Shown one piece after another: positions 24,627 through 30,627 of a stretch of 64,000 bases of DNA. Positions within the stretch are counted from its first letter, which is position 1. Each line of letters begins with the position of its first letter. Origin of the DNA: Thalassospira profundimaris (GTDB lineage: Bacteria; Pseudomonadota; Alphaproteobacteria; Rhodospirillales; Thalassospiraceae); contig NZ_JPWF01000003.1 of NCBI RefSeq assembly GCF_003326675.1, positions 310,001 to 374,000 on the forward strand. Direction: 5' to 3'. The position numbers and the translations under genes are program-made. The notes under the pieces were generated by a model. The model saw only the letters and a list, made by a program, of their open reading frames with translations, was not told the DNA's origin and made no database searches.

Positions 24627-25451
24627 ATGACCCGTTTCATTGCTGCCTGTGTTCAGGTCAATTCCCAGGACGCCATGTCCGATAACCTTGCGCGTGCGGC
24701 GACCTATGCACGTGATGCCCATGCGGCAGGTGCCCGGTTGATCGCATTTCCCGAAAATGTATCGATGATGTCTTTTGGTGGCGAAAATGTCCGTGCGGCG
24801 GCCTTTCCGGAAGGTGATCATCCCGGTCTTGTCTTTTTCTGTGATCTGGCCACGGAACTTCAATCAACCCTGATTGTCGGATCACTGCATGTAAAGGTCG
24901 AGGGCGAAGACCGGGTGGCAAACCGGTGCTTTGTGATTGGTCCCGATGGCAAGGTGATCACGTCTTATGACAAGATTCACATGTTTGATGTCGATCTTGC
25001 CAATGGTGAAAGTTACCGCGAAAGCAAAACATTCCGTCCCGGCGACACTGCCAAACTTGCGGAGACCGAATTCGGCAAGGTCGGTGTTTCAGTCTGTTAT
25101 GACGTGCGGTTCCCGCATCTGTTTCGGGATTATGCCAAGGCCGGGGCAAAGATCCTTAGCATCCCGGCGGCCTTTACCCGAACGACCGGGCAGGCACACT
25201 GGCATACGCTTTTGAAATCGCGGGCGATTGAAAATGGCTGCTTTGTCATTGCCGCTGCGCAGTGTGGCGATCATCCGGGCGGACGTCAGACATTCGGCCA
25301 TTCCCTGATCATTGATCCGTGGGGCGAAGTTCTGGCCGATGGCGGGACCGATCCCGGCTTTATCACGGCCGAGATCGATCTTGATCGGGTGGATGAAATC
25401 CGGCGCATGGTGCCATCCCTGCAAAATGGCCAGACCTATAAGTCATACTGA
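24627..25451 (+). CDS. Carbon-nitrogen hydrolase (nitrilase superfamily, Nit/amidase-like)
   Basis: 274 residues. The catalytic triad is complete: Glu in IAFPENVSMM, Lys in SYDKIHMFDV and Cys in GVSVCYDVRFPHLFR. The end QNGQTYKSY is normal. It fits the Nit1/Nit2-type omega-amidases or deaminated-glutathione amidases, which often lie close to grxC in Alphaproteobacteria; here grxC is 5.4 kb away. A clear RBS (AAAAGGAGAA) precedes the ATG. Confidence 0.9.
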   Translation: MTRFIAACVQVNSQDAMSDNLARAATYARDAHAAGARLIAFPENVSMMSFGGENVRAAAFPEGDHPGLVFFCDLATELQSTLIVGSLHVKVEGEDRVANRCFVIGPDGKVITSYDKIHMFDVDLANGESYRESKTFRPGDTAKLAETEFGKVGVSVCYDVRFPHLFRDYAKAGAKILSIPAAFTRTTGQAHWHTLLKSRAIENGCFVIAAAQCGDHPGGRQTFGHSLIIDPWGEVLADGGTDPGFITAEIDLDRVDEIRRMVPSLQNGQTYKSY

Positions 25452-25532
25452 TGACTGCTCACGTGACCGTGTATTGATAACTATCCATGTCAGGCTAGTT
25501 CTGACTTAGAGTGGTCGACTTTGCCATCTTGG

Positions 25533-26789
25533 TTACCTTTGAACATGGTTTCTGTACCCCTTTCTAGCGTCGATAAGAGATCGTTCTGAAACGGTGAAAG
25601 GAGTTCGTGTCTCTCTAGCGAGAAACTCTAGGAAACTTTCTTGTATTATTTTCGTCTGACCCACGTAAATTTTAAAATCTTCAGGTATGCTTGTGATTCT
25701 GGGGTTTACGATTATTAACTTTTTGTTCGATGATTTTGATATCCACTCACGGAACGTTTGGTTGATGTGGGTATCTCCAAACCCATATCCAATCACAAAT
25801 AGTTCATCTACGTAGCCCAGATGCCTTTTAAAAAGTGGAAGTATTTCGCTTGGGATGCTCTGTGAAGCTCTGTCTTCAAATTTGTGCATTCCAGTTAGCA
25901 CAGAGCGCCTCAAAAATTGGAGGGTCTTTTGATCGTCAAAGAATGCTATTTCGTTGGTGCATTTAAAATCAGGTATAGTTGCTATCAGTAGATTAATTTC
26001 ACGTAATAGAGAAATAATATGTCTGTAATTTGTGCATTCATCAAAGTTTATTTTTAGATATTTCTTATTGTCGTCATAAAGAAAAATATCTAAAGCGCCA
26101 TGAATCTTGAATAAATTTATTCCTCTATCGTTGATGTTATTCATAAAATTTAGTGGTTCTTGATGAAATTTGTCACAGTTAAATTCATCGAATTTTATTC
26201 GAGAATGGTTTTTATATTCATTTTGAATTAGTGGGATGCTCATTCCCCTGTTATAAAATCCTGTTTTGTATGTTATGTTGTAGTGGCTTGCCAATATCTC
26301 GATGTTTAGATCGTGGTTGGAAGTAAAAATCCAAAATGGGTAATCAACATCTAAAAATTTTTGGAATCTGTAATAAAGATCTAGCGTGTTTTTTATGTAT
26401 TTTTCATTTTTTACTTGTCGGAAAATTAGTAAAATCGATACTAGCTCGACTAACCAACTACGCATGTGATGGAGGTCTTGAAACAGGTCCTTATTGTTGT
26501 GAGTGCGACCTATTTCGACCTCAAGTGCGCCGATAATCTGTTCGTAATGTAGTTCTGAATTTGTAAGGAGTTTGGAAGTAATCTCAATTGTTTGATTCTT
26601 CCTTCCCTCACCACACTTTTTCCAGTGTTCATTGAGATCGTTCAACTTATTCGGAGTGAGCCAATCACGAATTTCGTTGGTGATATCCCATACTAGTGGA
26701 AGGCCAAAATCATAGGATGCTCCTGCTCCGAGAAACATCCCTCTCCAATTTTTCATTTGTTGAATCTTGGTTGTTAGCTTTCTAAGCAT
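25533..26789 (-). CDS. SIR2-like domain protein, AT-rich orphan (putative anti-phage NADase)
   Basis: About 418 residues from ATG 26789 (a TTG at 26819 and an ATG at 26756 are alternatives; none has a strong RBS). Sirtuin-type NAD-binding and catalytic motifs are intact: GAGASYDFGLP at 21-31, TSNHD at 156-160, KIHG with His 230, and VIGYGFGDTHIN at 332-343. This is the SIR2_2 pattern of bacterial defence NADases (as in DSR or ThsA-like proteins), not of protein deacetylases, and no Zn finger is seen. No membrane segment, and the last 80 residues match nothing recognised. The DNA is visibly AT-rich compared with both flanks and codon use differs, indicating horizontal transfer. No partner gene is next to it. 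A defence role is inferred. Confidence 0.78.
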   Translation of the reverse strand: MLRKLTTKIQQMKNWRGMFLGAGASYDFGLPLVWDITNEIRDWLTPNKLNDLNEHWKKCGEGRKNQTIEITSKLLTNSELHYEQIIGALEVEIGRTHNNKDLFQDLHHMRSWLVELVSILLIFRQVKNEKYIKNTLDLYYRFQKFLDVDYPFWIFTSNHDLNIEILASHYNITYKTGFYNRGMSIPLIQNEYKNHSRIKFDEFNCDKFHQEPLNFMNNINDRGINLFKIHGALDIFLYDDNKKYLKINFDECTNYRHIISLLREINLLIATIPDFKCTNEIAFFDDQKTLQFLRRSVLTGMHKFEDRASQSIPSEILPLFKRHLGYVDELFVIGYGFGDTHINQTFREWISKSSNKKLIIVNPRITSIPEDFKIYVGQTKIIQESFLEFLARETRTPFTVSERSLIDARKGYRNHVQR

Positions 26790-26862
26790 GCTAGCATAGA
26801 TGTAACTGACGCTGAACAAACGATTCTTTGCGACTGTAGTAAGTAGGGTTGTGTGCTGTATC

Positions 26863-26890
26863 GAAGTGGTCAGCGATAACTGACCACTTC
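26863..26890. repeat. Perfect 11-bp inverted repeat at the SIR2/VOC junction
   Basis: GAAGTGGTCAG, six-base loop, CTGACCACTTC. It covers the last codons of the VOC gene (stop at 26870-26872) and marks where AT-rich DNA meets normal DNA. There is no T-run on either side, so it is not a canonical terminator. Confidence 0.75.
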
Positions 26891-27271
26891 AAATTCAATG
26901 TTATCGGCATCGCGGAAATAAAACCGGCGACCGGGTTCATAGTCGGCGTGGTTATGGGTGTTGAAACCCGATGCCTTGATCTTTTCTTCGGTCGCGTCAA
27001 GGTCATCGACCACTACAGCAATATGGTTCAGGCCGCCCCGGGTTTGATAGGAAACATCGCTGGCCGCGTTGGCACCTTTGTTACCGTCAGTTTTGCCCGG
27101 GGAGTAAAGGGCGACATAACTTGACGTTCCCCCGACATGATAGGTTTGGCCTTCATAGATCGACGGACCTTTCCAGCGCACTTCCCAGCCAAACCAGTCA
27201 TACAGGTGTTGCGCGGTCTTTGCCGGATCAGAAACAGTAAAATTGACGTGTTCCAGGATTGCTTCACTCAT
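26870..27271 (-). CDS. VOC (glyoxalase/dioxygenase fold) protein
   Basis: 133 residues. N-terminal module EHVNFTVSDPAKTAQHLYDWFGW and C-terminal module GGLNHIAVVVDDLDATEEKI with a closing FRDADNIEFEVV. Possible metal ligands are His in LEHVNF, His in LNHIAV and Glu in IEFEVV, the glyoxalase I arrangement. RBS AGGGAAA precedes the ATG. Substrate unknown. Its 3' end is formed by one arm of an inverted repeat next to the AT-rich SIR2 gene, so a natural terminator may have been lost there. Confidence 0.82.
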   Translation of the reverse strand: MSEAILEHVNFTVSDPAKTAQHLYDWFGWEVRWKGPSIYEGQTYHVGGTSSYVALYSPGKTDGNKGANAASDVSYQTRGGLNHIAVVVDDLDATEEKIKASGFNTHNHADYEPGRRFYFRDADNIEFEVVSYR

Positions 27272-28116: not shown

Positions 28117-29481
28117 CTAGGAACTTCGCAATGCTGCGACCACCGGACGCCGATAAAGCATAAAGGCCGGAACCGTTGCCAAAACCAGTCCGATCACAAC
28201 AAAGCCGCCTGCCAGCATCAATTCGGATGATCCAAGCGATGCCTGCATTGCCATCCCGGTTTCGGCGGTAAAGATGCGTGAAACCGATTGCGCGACCATC
28301 CAGCCAAGGCCAAGTCCGCAAATTGCGCCGGTCACCACCAGCAGGGAGACATAGCTCCAGATTGCGGAAAAGACATAGCTTCTTGGCGCACCAAGAGCAC
28401 GCAGCACGGCAAATTGTTTGCGATAGAGCTGCATCAAGGCCAGCACTGCTGCCAAAATGGCGGCGACGACCAATGCCTGTGATCCAAGTGCCATTGCCCG
28501 CATGACCGATCCGGCATTGCCCAACAGGCGATACATTTCCACCAGAACCTCGGCCGGGAAGAAGGCTGTGGAATGATCGGTGCGATAGTCGGATCGAAGG
28601 GTATAGGCCGCCGCAACTGATTTGGGGCGCACCACAATGGCGGGAACACCGGGCAATTCATCAAGATCAAATGGCGGGCCGATGCGTATCACGTGATGAT
28701 GGTCATCATGATCGTGTGCATGTTCATGTTCATCTTCGTCGTGATCCGCCGCGTGATCGTGATCATGATTGTCATCGTGGTGGGCGTCGGCCTCATCGTG
28801 TTCATGATCGTCATGCGCTTCGTTGGCGTCATGATCATGTTCATCACCGGCAAGTTCATGATGCCCGGTCGGCAGGGCATGAAGATCCCAGACCTGTTCG
28901 ACGGCAACAATGATGGCGCTGTCCCATGGGGTGCCGGTGGGCTGCATTTTGCCAACTACATGAAGTTCCGCACCGTGATGGTGATCAAGAACGTCTTCCG
29001 GGCCATGGCCGTGGCTGGGTTCAAATTCATCGCCAATGGCAAGGGGAACGGCGGCACCGATGACGGCCTGTTCGATGGTTTTAAAGACATGTCCGCTGGC
29101 AAGGCCGCCCGACAGATATGTCACAAATTGCGGGGTTGATCCGACGATTGAATGCCCCTTCCAGCTATCACCAAAGGCAAGCGGGGCGGCAATCTCGACG
29201 CGGGGATCATCAAACAGCTTTCCCCAATGTGGTCCATCAAGAAGATTGATCGCGCTATGTTGCAGGAAGATCGAATTCATGACGATTTCGGTCTGGCTTC
29301 CGGGGGCGGCGATCAGGATGTCAAACTTATCAGCCGCCTGTGCGCTGCCCTGACGCAGTGCACGTTCCTGTGCCGTCAGGCCGACACCGATGGCAACCGC
29401 GACCGCGATCAAAAGAACAAACAAAATGTTCATGATCCAGTGGCGTCGAAGACTGGCCATTACAATCGGAAACGGATTCAT
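28117..29481 (-). CDS. FtsX/MacB-like ABC permease with a His-rich periplasmic loop
   Basis: 454 residues. The first helix is IMNILFVLLIAVAVAIGVGL; a large periplasmic domain (about 40-325) follows, then three C-terminal helices (about 335-355, 380-405 and 425-445) as in FtsX-type permeases. Residues 207-263 hold 20 histidines in 57 residues, alternating with Asp and Glu, a strong metal-binding signature. The ATG overlaps the ATPase gene stop by 4 nt. The gene set resembles the Zur-regulated zinc-linked ABC operon of Pseudomonas (PA4063-PA4066 type), so a zinc-delivery or zinc-sensing role in the periplasm is inferred. Confidence 0.82.
   Translation of the reverse strand: MNPFPIVMASLRRHWIMNILFVLLIAVAVAIGVGLTAQERALRQGSAQAADKFDILIAAPGSQTEIVMNSIFLQHSAINLLDGPHWGKLFDDPRVEIAAPLAFGDSWKGHSIVGSTPQFVTYLSGGLASGHVFKTIEQAVIGAAVPLAIGDEFEPSHGHGPEDVLDHHHGAELHVVGKMQPTGTPWDSAIIVAVEQVWDLHALPTGHHELAGDEHDHDANEAHDDHEHDEADAHHDDNHDHDHAADHDEDEHEHAHDHDDHHHVIRIGPPFDLDELPGVPAIVVRPKSVAAAYTLRSDYRTDHSTAFFPAEVLVEMYRLLGNAGSVMRAMALGSQALVVAAILAAVLALMQLYRKQFAVLRALGAPRSYVFSAIWSYVSLLVVTGAICGLGLGWMVAQSVSRIFTAETGMAMQASLGSSELMLAGGFVVIGLVLATVPAFMLYRRPVVAALRSS
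28693..28863 (-). repeat. His/Asp-rich low-complexity coding stretch
   Basis: Imperfect tandem units such as GAHDDHEHD-type codons (CAT/GAT/GAA-rich) encode residues 207-263 of the ABC permease. The opposite strand shows a spurious Met/Ile/Val-rich frame. Confidence 0.85.
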
Positions 29482-30209
29482 GCAATGCCTGCCTTTGCCT
29501 TGATGTTAGCGCTATCATCAATCAGTGCGCCCTTGTCAAAGCGCAACACACGCGCACAGCGATCAATTACATCCATATCGTGGCTGACGGTGATGATGGT
29601 GCGGTTTGGACCGGCGAGTGAGAACAGGATATCGGTTGCGGTTTTTGATGCTGCGTCATCAAGGCTTGCGGTTGGTTCATCGGCCAGAATGATCGGCGGA
29701 TCAAATAGCAGGGCACGGGCAATAGCCACACGTTGCTGTTCACCACGTGACAGGTCAGATGTGCTTTTACGTGCGAGTGGTACGCCAACCTGATCAAGAA
29801 GGTCGTGGGCGCGTTTGCGGGTGGCTGCATCAATGCGCCAGCCGACAAAACTTGCCGGGATCAGAACGTTTTCAAGCGGGCTGACCTCGTCAATCAGGTG
29901 GAAATCCTGAAACACAAAACCGATGGAATCGCGCCGCCAGCGATCTGTCGCGCCTTCGCCAAAGGTTGTGATATCCGTGCCATCCCAAATGATCTTGCCG
30001 TGGCTTGGCTTCAAAAGGCCGCTGATCAGATAAAGCAGGCTGGATTTTCCCGAACCTGACGGGCCAGAGATGCCGACGGTTTCACCGTGGTCAATCGCAA
30101 GGTTGCCGATCTGCAAAACAGGATGGGTGTCTTTGCCATATTGCAGGCTGAGTTCCCTGATTTCCAGAAGGGGCAAACCTTTGGGCTCAGAGGATTTCGA
30201 ACTGGGCAT
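29478..30209 (-). CDS. ABC transporter ATP-binding protein (LolD/MacB type)
   Basis: About 243 residues. Walker A GPSGSGKSSLLYLISG, signature DLSRGEQQRVAIARAL, Walker B IILADEPTASLDD and H-loop TVSHDMD are intact. This is the short ATPase type that partners FtsX-like permeases, here the next gene. The start is uncertain: ATG 30209 gives a normal length and overlaps the end of the preceding gene by about 20 nt; ATG 30248 would add 13 residues. Confidence 0.88.
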   Translation of the reverse strand: MPSSKSSEPKGLPLLEIRELSLQYGKDTHPVLQIGNLAIDHGETVGISGPSGSGKSSLLYLISGLLKPSHGKIIWDGTDITTFGEGATDRWRRDSIGFVFQDFHLIDEVSPLENVLIPASFVGWRIDAATRKRAHDLLDQVGVPLARKSTSDLSRGEQQRVAIARALLFDPPIILADEPTASLDDAASKTATDILFSLAGPNRTIITVSHDMDVIDRCARVLRFDKGALIDDSANIKAKAGIA

Positions 30210-30627
30210 CGACAAGTCGGACAAGGCTGACAAAACCGGTTTCCTCATCTTTGGCTTCACCGAGCTCGAGAATGCCGGTGGTCATGATTGGTCGATTAAA
30301 GGCGACGGCATCAACGATTTTACTGGTGCGGACAAACACGATGTCGCTGGGCCAGTCCGCAGATGTTTCGCAGAACGGGCAGACGGCCATCGGGCGCTGT
30401 GTCAGAACGAAAAACGATGCGTCGGCCTTAAGTGGCGGCGCCATAAAGCCGGGGACATTGATGACTTCGCGCGAGGCGGCAAAGGATTTTGCCTGATCGG
30501 AAAATTCGGCCTGTGTTTTGTAAAGGTCGCGAATTTTGATCTTTTCGCGGGCAAATGCCGGCTTGGCGAATACCAGCCCAAGGGTGGCAGATGCGCCAGC
30601 GATGAAAGTGCGGCGTCCGATACGCAT
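30187..30627 (-). CDS. Tat-exported small protein, DUF3299-like, of the zinc-linked ABC unit
   Basis: 146 residues from the ATG at 30627 (GGAG 8 nt upstream); the frame is open 18 codons further. The N-terminus MRIGRRTFIAGASATLG is a twin-arginine type signal ending at KPAFA. The mature protein has VPGFMAPPLKADASFFVLT followed by a CPFC motif, as in DUF3299-like proteins that occur with FtsX-type ABC transporters in zinc-regulated loci. The CxxC may bind metal or be redox active. It overlaps the ATPase gene, so co-translation is likely. Family match is moderate. Confidence 0.7.
   Translation of the reverse strand: MRIGRRTFIAGASATLGLVFAKPAFAREKIKIRDLYKTQAEFSDQAKSFAASREVINVPGFMAPPLKADASFFVLTQRPMAVCPFCETSADWPSDIVFVRTSKIVDAVAFNRPIMTTGILELGEAKDEETGFVSLVRLVDAQFEIL

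What the first reader, a model, noticed from the sequence alone, without database searches (positions are those of the whole stretch)
25533..26789. Isolated AT-rich SIR2-like gene, a candidate single-gene anti-phage NADase
All sirtuin NAD motifs are intact (GAGAS, TSNHD, KIHG, GYGFGDTHIN) without the zinc finger of deacetylases, as in defence proteins. The gene differs sharply in base composition from both neighbours and interrupts an ordinary backbone region. No known partner gene (Thoeris, DSR, prophage, restriction or transposase genes) is next to it, so it could be a stand-alone system with a novel C-terminal part.
Basis: partly seen in the sequence, partly recalled or inferred. Interest (0 to 1): 0.75.

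Follow-up and report, generated by a model that had tools for sequence, protein, structure and literature searches.

The report
Lone SIR2-type NAD-destroying defence gene
A single foreign gene dropped between two ordinary housekeeping genes of a bacterium very probably makes an enzyme that destroys the cell's NAD to stop virus infection, and it belongs to a sparsely scattered family with no constant partner gene, some members of which are carried by phages.

Summary
An intact 418-codon ORF lies on the minus strand (26789-25533), 36% GC against 54% for the rest of the window, with a complete SIR2 NAD-binding and catalytic set and no zinc finger. It is a clean one-gene insertion: 28 of 28 other genomes of the genus lack it. 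The AlphaFold2 model (pLDDT 89.6) is one SIR2-like domain, closest to the SIR2 subunit of SIR2-HerA (Nezha). There is no novel C-terminal domain, and no HerA, TIR, Argonaute or STAND partner was found. I aligned 35 near-full-length relatives from several phyla; clustering the neighbours of 48 loci shows no conserved partner gene. Five of eight viral-contig copies have phage head, tail, packaging or lysis genes within a few kb, and a few relatives lie beside known defence genes. In one relative the gene occupies the effector position of a type II CBASS operon. Best reading: a minimal, stand-alone SIR2_2 (SIRim) NADase acting by abortive infection, a new variant of a known kind. The trigger is unknown and no activity has been shown. 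The main rival is that it is an effector controlled in trans; the host genome holds a CBASS-like operon with its own putative effector.

The parts
25533..26789 (-). SIR2_2-type protein, 418 aa, single SIR2-like domain (alternative TTG start at 26819)
26715..26729 (-). GAGAS motif, residues 21-25 (NAD-binding loop)
   Evidence: sequence; G21, A22, G23 and S25 invariant in 36 of 36 aligned rows
26310..26318 (-). N158-H159-D160, with the presumed catalytic Asn158
   Evidence: invariant in 36 of 36; aligns with the TTNYD-type segment of E. coli Nezha SIR2
26097..26102 (-). H230-G231, presumed catalytic His
   Evidence: H230 kept in 34 of 36 (Q in L059, R in L069), G231 in 36 of 36; aligns with KLHG of E. 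coli Nezha SIR2
25761..25790 (-). GYGFGDTHIN motif, residues 334-343
   Evidence: aligned to PDB SIR2 chains
25452..26861 (.). Inserted segment of about 1.4 kb, holding only the SIR2 gene, between two convergent backbone genes (left edge known only to within some tens of bases)
   Evidence: gene absent from 28 of 28 genus-mates; empty site read in 23, nitrilase followed by the next backbone gene in the other 5; no clear terminal repeats or target duplication
24627..25451 (+). Left flank: carbon-nitrogen hydrolase (nitrilase superfamily), backbone
   Evidence: Pfam CN_hydrolase 1.7e-61; present in 29 of 29 genomes of the genus, own included
26870..27271 (-). Right flank: glyoxalase/VOC protein, backbone
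   Evidence: Pfam Glyoxalase 8.4e-11; next to the nitrilase in 23 of 28 other genomes
26863..26890 (.). Perfect 11-bp inverted repeat overlapping the 3' end of the VOC gene; inferred right edge of the insertion
   Evidence: identical in 10 of 23 empty sites and 17-21 of 22 arm bases in the other 13

Best explanation
The gene encodes a minimal SIR2_2-class (SIRim) NAD+ glycohydrolase that works as a one-gene abortive-infection defence. It was acquired horizontally as a single-gene cargo, perhaps by way of phage- or plasmid-borne copies, and landed between two convergent housekeeping genes. Inferred mechanism: the protein is made in an inactive form. On infection, a phage-derived trigger, binding the SIR2 protein itself because there is no sensor domain and no partner gene, changes its oligomeric state. 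Asn158 and His230 then cleave NAD+ to nicotinamide and ADP-ribose, NAD collapses, and the phage burst is lost. Shown here by computation: SIR2 fold, complete catalytic set, no zinc module, one-gene insertion absent from relatives, no constant partner in the family, phage and defence contexts of some relatives. Inferred: NADase activity, abortive outcome, self-contained triggering, oligomerisation.
For: Catalytic set invariant (N158, D160, G21-A-G-x-S, G334 in 36 of 36 rows; H230 in 34 of 36). Confident model, pLDDT 89.6, pTM 0.89. The top 35 PDB folds are all chains of SIR2-HerA entries (best 1.1e-11, TM about 0.4-0.55), then DSR2 (2.4e-5). Profile search of the PDB gives SIR2-like chains 8j4u, 8yhx and 8w9l, plus one unrelated hit at 0.072. 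In V. cholerae Nezha the active-site Asn and His are required for defence (PMC11559045, passages read). Absent from 28 of 28 genus-mates, with a clean empty site. Neighbour clustering of 48 loci shows no partner shared by more than two loci, apart from pieces of broken SIR2 genes themselves. In 40 of 45 non-redundant loci the gene's GC is below that of its surroundings, by 5 points or more in 30. 5 of 8 viral loci with long matches have phage structural, packaging or lysis genes within about 7 kb. Ten PADLOC families match neighbours of relatives at 1e-40 (101 scanned) against 0 for 53 other window proteins.
Against: No experiment. Curated family cut-offs are not reached: Pfam SIR2_2 23 against 24.5 bits, NCBIfam SIR2_antiphage 33 against 500. 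In the fold search a deacetylase-type sirtuin (3pdh, 1.6e-4) follows DSR2 (2.4e-5) closely; only the SIR2-HerA chains stand clearly apart. Those closest relatives by fold need HerA for defence (PMC11559045), so acting alone is unproven. There is no recognisable sensor region. In L045 the gene precedes a CBASS operon, so some relatives may need a signal from another system. Two pairs of loci from different genomes share a close neighbour (L064/L066 downstream; L069/L073 upstream), so a partner within a sub-branch is not excluded. Only 4 of 20 hand-picked neighbours matched PADLOC at 1e-20. The 'phages' collection gave no match with two queries. Two relatives have lost H230, and several copies are broken reading frames, so some are not active enzymes.
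Confidence: 0.6

Rival explanations
1. It is a SIR2 effector that needs an activator made elsewhere in the genome, for example a cyclic nucleotide from a CBASS cyclase, as the position of the relative L045 suggests.
For: L045, in the tree clade that holds the window protein (91/91), has the SIR2 gene 54 nt upstream, on the same strand, of a SMODS cyclase, a ThiF-domain protein and a JAB protein, i.e. in the effector position of type II CBASS. The window's genome holds a SMODS cyclase on contig C25 in what looks by eye like a type II CBASS operon.
Against: The PADLOC cyclase model that fits L045's cyclase (8.6e-84) finds nothing in the window's genome, so its cyclase is of another kind. The C25 operon has its own putative effector, a 365-aa protein that by eye looks like TM-SAVED (not profile-tested). 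No SAVED, CARF or SLOG-like extra domain is seen in the window protein. In L053 and L061 of the same clade the neighbours scanned showed no CBASS cyclase or E1/E2.
Confidence: 0.15
2. It is the effector half of a broken two-gene system (SIR2-HerA type) and no longer functions by itself.
For: The nearest solved structures are SIR2 subunits of SIR2-HerA, which need HerA for defence (PMC11559045, passages).
Against: The whole genome gives only one borderline DUF87/HerA-type hit, 23.3 bits against a cut-off of 23.2, on another contig. No HerA-like gene recurs beside the relatives. The ORF is full length with the invariant residues in place.
Confidence: 0.12
3. It is a metabolic or regulatory sirtuin (NAD-dependent deacylase) or another NAD-processing enzyme unrelated to defence.
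For: It belongs to the sirtuin superfamily; deacetylase sirtuins appear lower in the fold search, close behind DSR2.
Against: No zinc-binding cysteines; SIR2-HerA chains rank first by far; sporadic presence; some copies in phage modules.
Confidence: 0.05
4. It is a decaying or silent horizontally acquired ORF with no present function.
For: No good promoter was found (one search finds fewer promoter-like sites than the shuffles) and no clear Shine-Dalgarno was seen by eye. Broken copies exist in other genomes.
Against: A full-length open frame with the invariant residues, in a sequence about 60% different from its nearest relative found, implies long purifying selection before arrival.
Confidence: 0.08

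Closest known systems
SIR2-HerA (Nezha) SIR2 subunit, PDB 8su9, 8uae, 8j4u, 8w9l
   Same: Single-chain SIR2-like protein of about 380-430 aa with GAGxS and the Asn and His segments; best fold and profile match
   Different: About 12-18% identity in the fold alignments, TM about 0.5; no HerA beside it here, and none recurring beside relatives
DSR1/DSR2 single-protein NADase defence
   Same: One gene; SIR2 NADase; abortive infection by NAD loss (DSR2, literature)
   Different: DSR2 chains in the PDB are about 915-973 residues, with a large extra region that this 418-aa protein lacks
Human FAM118B/A and the SIR2_2/SIRim class (PMC12700824, passages read)
   Same: SIR2_2 protein without zinc module; NAD processing tied to assembly
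   Different: Vertebrate clade in which the two paralogues together are active; not compared in sequence here
ThsA of Thoeris
   Same: SIR2_2 NADase effector
   Different: ThsA carries a SLOG or Macro domain and needs a TIR protein (literature); neither such a domain nor a TIR_2 match in the genome is present
Uncharacterised SIR2-domain genes in P4-like and P2-like phage hotspots (PMC9122126, passages read)
   Same: SIR2-domain genes as cargo of phages and satellites in E. coli, listed there as uncharacterised systems
   Different: Their sequences and sizes were not seen, so identity with this family is untested; some are SIR2-STAND fusions
Type II CBASS
   Same: A relative (L045) sits in the effector position of a CBASS operon
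   Different: No cyclase near the window gene; the genome's cyclase is on another contig and of another kind

Membership tests
SIR2_2 / SIRim subfamily of sirtuins | SIR2 fold with GAGxS, catalytic Asn and His | tested here: met
SIR2_2 / SIRim subfamily of sirtuins | No zinc-binding module | tested here: met
   four scattered Cys, no CxxC
SIR2_2 / SIRim subfamily of sirtuins | Curated Pfam SIR2_2 score | tested here: inconclusive
   23 bits against cut-off 24.5, E 9.2e-5; the whole-genome search with this family listed another locus (L115), not this one
SIR2_2 / SIRim subfamily of sirtuins | NAD+ hydrolysis | not testable with these tools
   needs an assay
SIR2-HerA (Nezha) | Adjacent HerA ATPase | tested here: not met
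   neighbours are nitrilase and VOC; one borderline DUF87 hit elsewhere in the genome; no recurring HerA beside relatives
DSR1/DSR2 | Large extra region (DSR2 chains of about 915-973 aa) | tested here: not met
   418 aa; short C-terminal helix only; DSR1 length not looked up
Thoeris | SLOG or Macro domain on ThsA and a TIR ThsB | tested here: not met
   single domain; no TIR_2 match in the genome
SPARSA / short pAgo-SIR2 | Short Argonaute neighbour, APAZ domain | tested here: not met
   flanks are nitrilase and VOC; no PADLOC family at 1e-40 among 53 other window ORFs; APAZ not profiled separately
AVAST type V / SIR2-STAND | STAND ATPase fused C-terminally | tested here: not met
   418 aa single domain
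NCBIfam NF042942 SIR2_antiphage | Score at or above 500 bits | tested here: not met
   33.1 bits
CBASS effector | Operon with CD-NTase | tested here: not met
   not at this locus; seen only in relative L045
Deacylase sirtuins | Four-Cys zinc module | tested here: not met

The most novel reading that the evidence does not exclude
This about 400-aa SIR2_2 family is the minimal form of NADase immunity: one compact SIR2 domain that both senses a phage product and destroys NAD, spread as single-gene cargo of temperate phages and plasmids. The same module has also been taken up as the effector of a CBASS operon, so one protein family works both as a self-contained system and as a plug-in effector.
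Probability: 0.3. Interest if true: 0.65.

Novelty: new variant of a known kind. Interest (0 to 1): 0.45.

Why it matters
The SIR2 defence systems listed in a 2023 review (PMC10952713, passages read: Thoeris, SPARSA, DSR1, DSR2, Sir2-HerA, Avast V, PD-T7-2) have either a partner or, as I understand them, a large extra region in the same protein; attributing that region to sensing is my reading. A single compact SIR2 domain that defends alone would ask how one fold senses infection and stays safe for the host, and would be a small, tractable model for NADase immunity and for its human relatives FAM118A/B. The relative in the CBASS effector position makes the question 'sensor inside, or signal from outside' directly testable within one family.

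Tried and rejected
Novel C-terminal domain: rejected, the model ends with short elements and one helix after the Rossmann fold; 10 of 35 aligned relatives (L041, L043, L044, L046-L049, L051, L056, L066) carry a longer tail, but the window protein does not. Nezha, Thoeris, SPARSA, DSR and AVAST membership: rejected, see the membership table. A defence hotspot at this site in genus-mates: not seen; the five genomes lacking the VOC gene have the nitrilase directly followed by the next backbone gene, with no other cargo, and the 23 others have 35-81 bp there. A transposon with terminal repeats or a target duplication: nothing convincing; one 13-of-17 direct repeat (25476-25492 and 26875-26891) is of a kind that one search shows elsewhere in the gene. 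E. coli homologues: a near search with the Leclercia copy gave nothing. Phage records (INPHARED): none with two queries. Plasmid records: one Vibrio plasmid only, with three queries. First viral-contig scan with the single protein: nothing. The pdb_via fold library was not available. Literature: eight searches; none of the papers they listed has a title or shown start of abstract that describes a stand-alone roughly 400-aa SIR2 defence gene. Only passages of six papers were read (PMC9519451, PMC11559045, PMC12700824, PMC11514479, PMC10952713, PMC9122126). PMC9122126 mentions uncharacterised SIR2-domain systems in phage and satellite hotspots, and the SIRim phylogeny paper (Bonhomme 2025, seen only as a reference in PMC12700824) was not read, so prior description cannot be excluded. 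Host genus: Thalassospira is my recollection from gene content and genome size; no call named it.

Full report
Check of the observation. The reading frame lies on the minus strand, ATG at 26789, stop ending at 25533, 418 aa; a TTG 30 bases upstream is also possible. Many relatives start at about the equivalent of residues 11-16, so the true start is uncertain. Gene GC is 0.36 against 0.54 for the rest of the window; 500-bp windows inside the gene fall to 0.30-0.40, against about 0.47-0.61 elsewhere in 15-38 kb. Third-position GC is 0.37 against 0.57 and 0.54 in the flanking genes. SIR2 similarity is secure with PADLOC SIR2 models (best 7.4e-16), weak with Pfam SIR2_2 (9.2e-5, 1.5 bits under the cut-off) and with NCBIfam SIR2_antiphage (3.1e-8 but far below the cut-off). 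A single-sequence search of the PDB found nothing up to E 1.

It is a one-gene insertion. The search of 60 genomes (own, 28 of the same genus, 31 of the same order) found the protein in its own genome and one short match in an order-mate (G037, residues 313-364, 9.0e-6); none of the 28 genus-mates has it. DNA of the locus matched in 29 of 29 genomes of the genus including the window's own. In 23 of the 28 others the nitrilase and VOC alignments end 35-81 bp apart, against about 1.43 kb in the window. In the remaining five the VOC gene was not found and the nitrilase is followed directly by the next backbone gene. The inserted piece holds only the SIR2 gene. The right edge is placed at the start of a perfect 11-bp inverted repeat that overlaps the end of the VOC gene; this repeat is identical in 10 of the 23 empty sites and matches at 17-21 of 22 arm bases in the other 13. 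No clear terminal repeats or target duplication were found.

The family. Searches found: one plasmid relative at 32% identity in Vibrio parahaemolyticus; 0 of 384 other genomes drawn from the class; three of 397 other genomes drawn from the phylum, one of them (L036) a short match only; 73 loci in genome contigs; and 11 in viral contigs (which includes the 4), 8 of them long matches. I aligned the window protein with 35 near-full-length relatives; the shortest, L081, is 352 aa and lacks the C-terminal end. Of the 48 loci examined, 13 were dropped before the alignment: fragments and broken frames (L052, L057, L064, L067, L070, L071, L072, L075, L079), copies of the same genome (L034, L035, L050) and the plasmid copy L033, which was added back for the tree. 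Not examined: L002 and L036 (short matches) and the weaker partial matches L082-L113. The later viral loci L141-L144 were not added. Identity to the window protein is 21-40%. The tree (37 rows) mixes Alpha-, Beta-, Gamma- and Epsilonproteobacteria, Bacteroidota, Myxococcota, Chloroflexota and others; seven rows form a distant outer clade. The window protein groups with L045, L053 and L061 with moderate support (91/91), though its nearest rows by path and identity are the viral-contig copies L037 and L038. With the family profile, 16 of 289 class genomes gave some match, own included, but in the rows listed only the window's own spans nearly the whole model, so close members are rare.

Catalysis and fold. 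G21, A22, G23, S25, N158, H159, D160, G231 and G334 are invariant in 36 of 36 rows; H230 in 34 of 36, being Q in L059 and R in L069. The profile aligns N158 and H230 with the corresponding Asn and His segments of E. coli Nezha SIR2. In V. cholerae Nezha, N168A or H227A abolished immunity (PMC11559045, passages read). The AlphaFold2 model has pLDDT 89.6 and pTM 0.89. Foldseek ranks chains of SIR2-HerA entries in places 1-35 (best 1.1e-11, TM about 0.4-0.55); DSR2 follows at 2.4e-5, KomBC at 1.4e-4, the deacetylase-type sirtuin 3pdh at 1.6e-4 and Avs5 at 2.1e-4. So the SIR2-HerA match stands apart, while DSR2 and deacetylases are nearly level. Rmsd values are large (about 6-17 A in the 50 rows shown), so the match is of fold, not of fine geometry. 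In the viral library the only hit under 0.001 is a Marseillevirus Sir2 protein. The model is one domain; I see nothing like SLOG, Macro, STAND or a DSR-type extra region.

Partners. Neighbouring ORFs of 48 loci (up to five on each side, BLASTP at 1e-6 and 40% coverage) were clustered. The only cluster over three loci consists of pieces of broken SIR2 genes. There are 24 two-locus clusters: 16 are the same genome seen twice, one joins the two near-identical viral contigs L037/L038, and seven join different genomes, of which L064/L066 (downstream) and L069/L073 (directly upstream, two related bins) are close neighbours. A partner confined to a sub-branch is thus not excluded, and distant similarity would be missed. 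In the window's genome there is no TIR_2 match and only a borderline DUF87 hit on another contig. The family as a whole shows no constant partner.

Context of relatives. At 1e-5, 142 PADLOC families matched the 101 neighbours scanned (103 listed, two left out), most of the 25 shown being E1-E2 models. I then used 1e-40: ten families match, each by one member: E1-E2 twice, PD-T7-1, PDC-S71, AbiLi, Cyclase, PD-Lambda-4_A, PDC-S05 twice and PD-T7-5. None match the 53 other window proteins at 1e-40. This control is from one genome and at one threshold and is rough. Of 20 hand-picked neighbours, 4 matched PADLOC at 1e-20: L055 (AbiLi/AriA), L065 (PDC-S71), L045 (cyclase) and L078 (PDC-S49). Of the eight viral-contig loci with long matches, ten neighbours from six loci, picked by eye, were scanned with PHROGs. 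Five loci have phage structural, packaging or lysis genes: directly beside the SIR2 gene in L144 (terminase, with portal further off) and L145 (tape measure); one ORF away in L141 (tail terminator, head-tail adaptor further off); about 1.7 kb away in L143 (endolysin; terminase about 6 kb); about 5-7 kb away in L142 (tail fibre and tail protein) (positions). L139 has a CI-like repressor. L138 and L140 were not scanned; L140 is the same gene as L050 on a Sorangium chromosome. In L145 (same contig as L040) the SIR2 gene lies antisense between tail genes. Carriage of defence genes by P2-like phages and P4-like satellites is established for E. coli, and uncharacterised SIR2-domain systems are mentioned there (PMC9122126, passages read).

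CBASS link. In L045 the SIR2 gene lies 54 nt upstream, on the same strand, of a SMODS cyclase, a ThiF-domain protein and a JAB protein, i.e. where type II CBASS keeps its effector (recalled). The window's genome carries a SMODS cyclase on contig C25, in what by eye looks like a CBASS operon beside an integrase-like ORF, with its own candidate effector; the PADLOC model that fits L045's cyclase finds nothing in this genome. I therefore keep trans-activation as a rival, not as the main reading.

Mechanism and confidence. That this is a SIR2_2 NADase-type defence effector I put at about 0.75; that it acts as a self-contained one-gene system at about 0.6; that this also holds with CBASS recruitment elsewhere at about 0.3. 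Shown by computation: fold, catalytic residues, insertion, lack of partner, contexts. Inferred: NAD hydrolysis, abortive infection, internal sensing, oligomer control. Membership: it belongs to the broad SIR2_2/SIRim class and fails the defining features of Nezha, Thoeris, SPARSA, DSR1/2 and AVAST V. It would work like the NADase half of those systems.

Noticed in passing
L045:6001-10427: SIR2 relative in the effector position of a type II CBASS operon (SMODS cyclase, ThiF-domain protein, JAB) in a Campylobacteraceae MAG; a possible SIR2 effector for CBASS.
   Followed up: partly
L137 (G000:C25:1-9427): The window's genome has what looks like a type II CBASS operon (SMODS cyclase by profile; E1/E2, JAB and a 365-aa putative TM-SAVED effector by eye) on a small contig with an integrase-like ORF.
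   Followed up: partly
L115:1111-2895 (G000:C1:383188): A second, different SIR2_2 protein (594 aa, long C-terminal region) elsewhere in the same genome.
   Followed up: no
L018:569-1423: In one genus-mate roughly the last third of the VOC gene is repeated in tandem three more times (about 157-bp units) between VOC and nitrilase.
   Followed up: partly
L145:7215-13597 (same contig as L040): A SIR2 relative lies antisense between tail genes (DUF2460 and tape measure) of a viral contig, a moron inside the tail module.
   Followed up: partly
L059 and L069: Two relatives keep the family fold motifs but have Q or R in place of the catalytic His230, suggesting altered or dead enzymes.
   Followed up: no
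L052, L064, L067, L070, L071, L075: Relatives whose reading frames are broken; the gene may often be lost by mutation, or these are assembly errors.
   Followed up: no
L064:3916-5454 and L066:2156-3394; L069:4854-5963 and L073:4867-5988: Two pairs of relatives from different genomes share a close neighbour, a possible partner in sub-branches.
   Followed up: no
window 28117-30260: An FtsX-like permease (by eye) with a very His/Asp/Glu-rich loop next to an ABC ATPase; looks like a metal-linked exporter.
   Followed up: no
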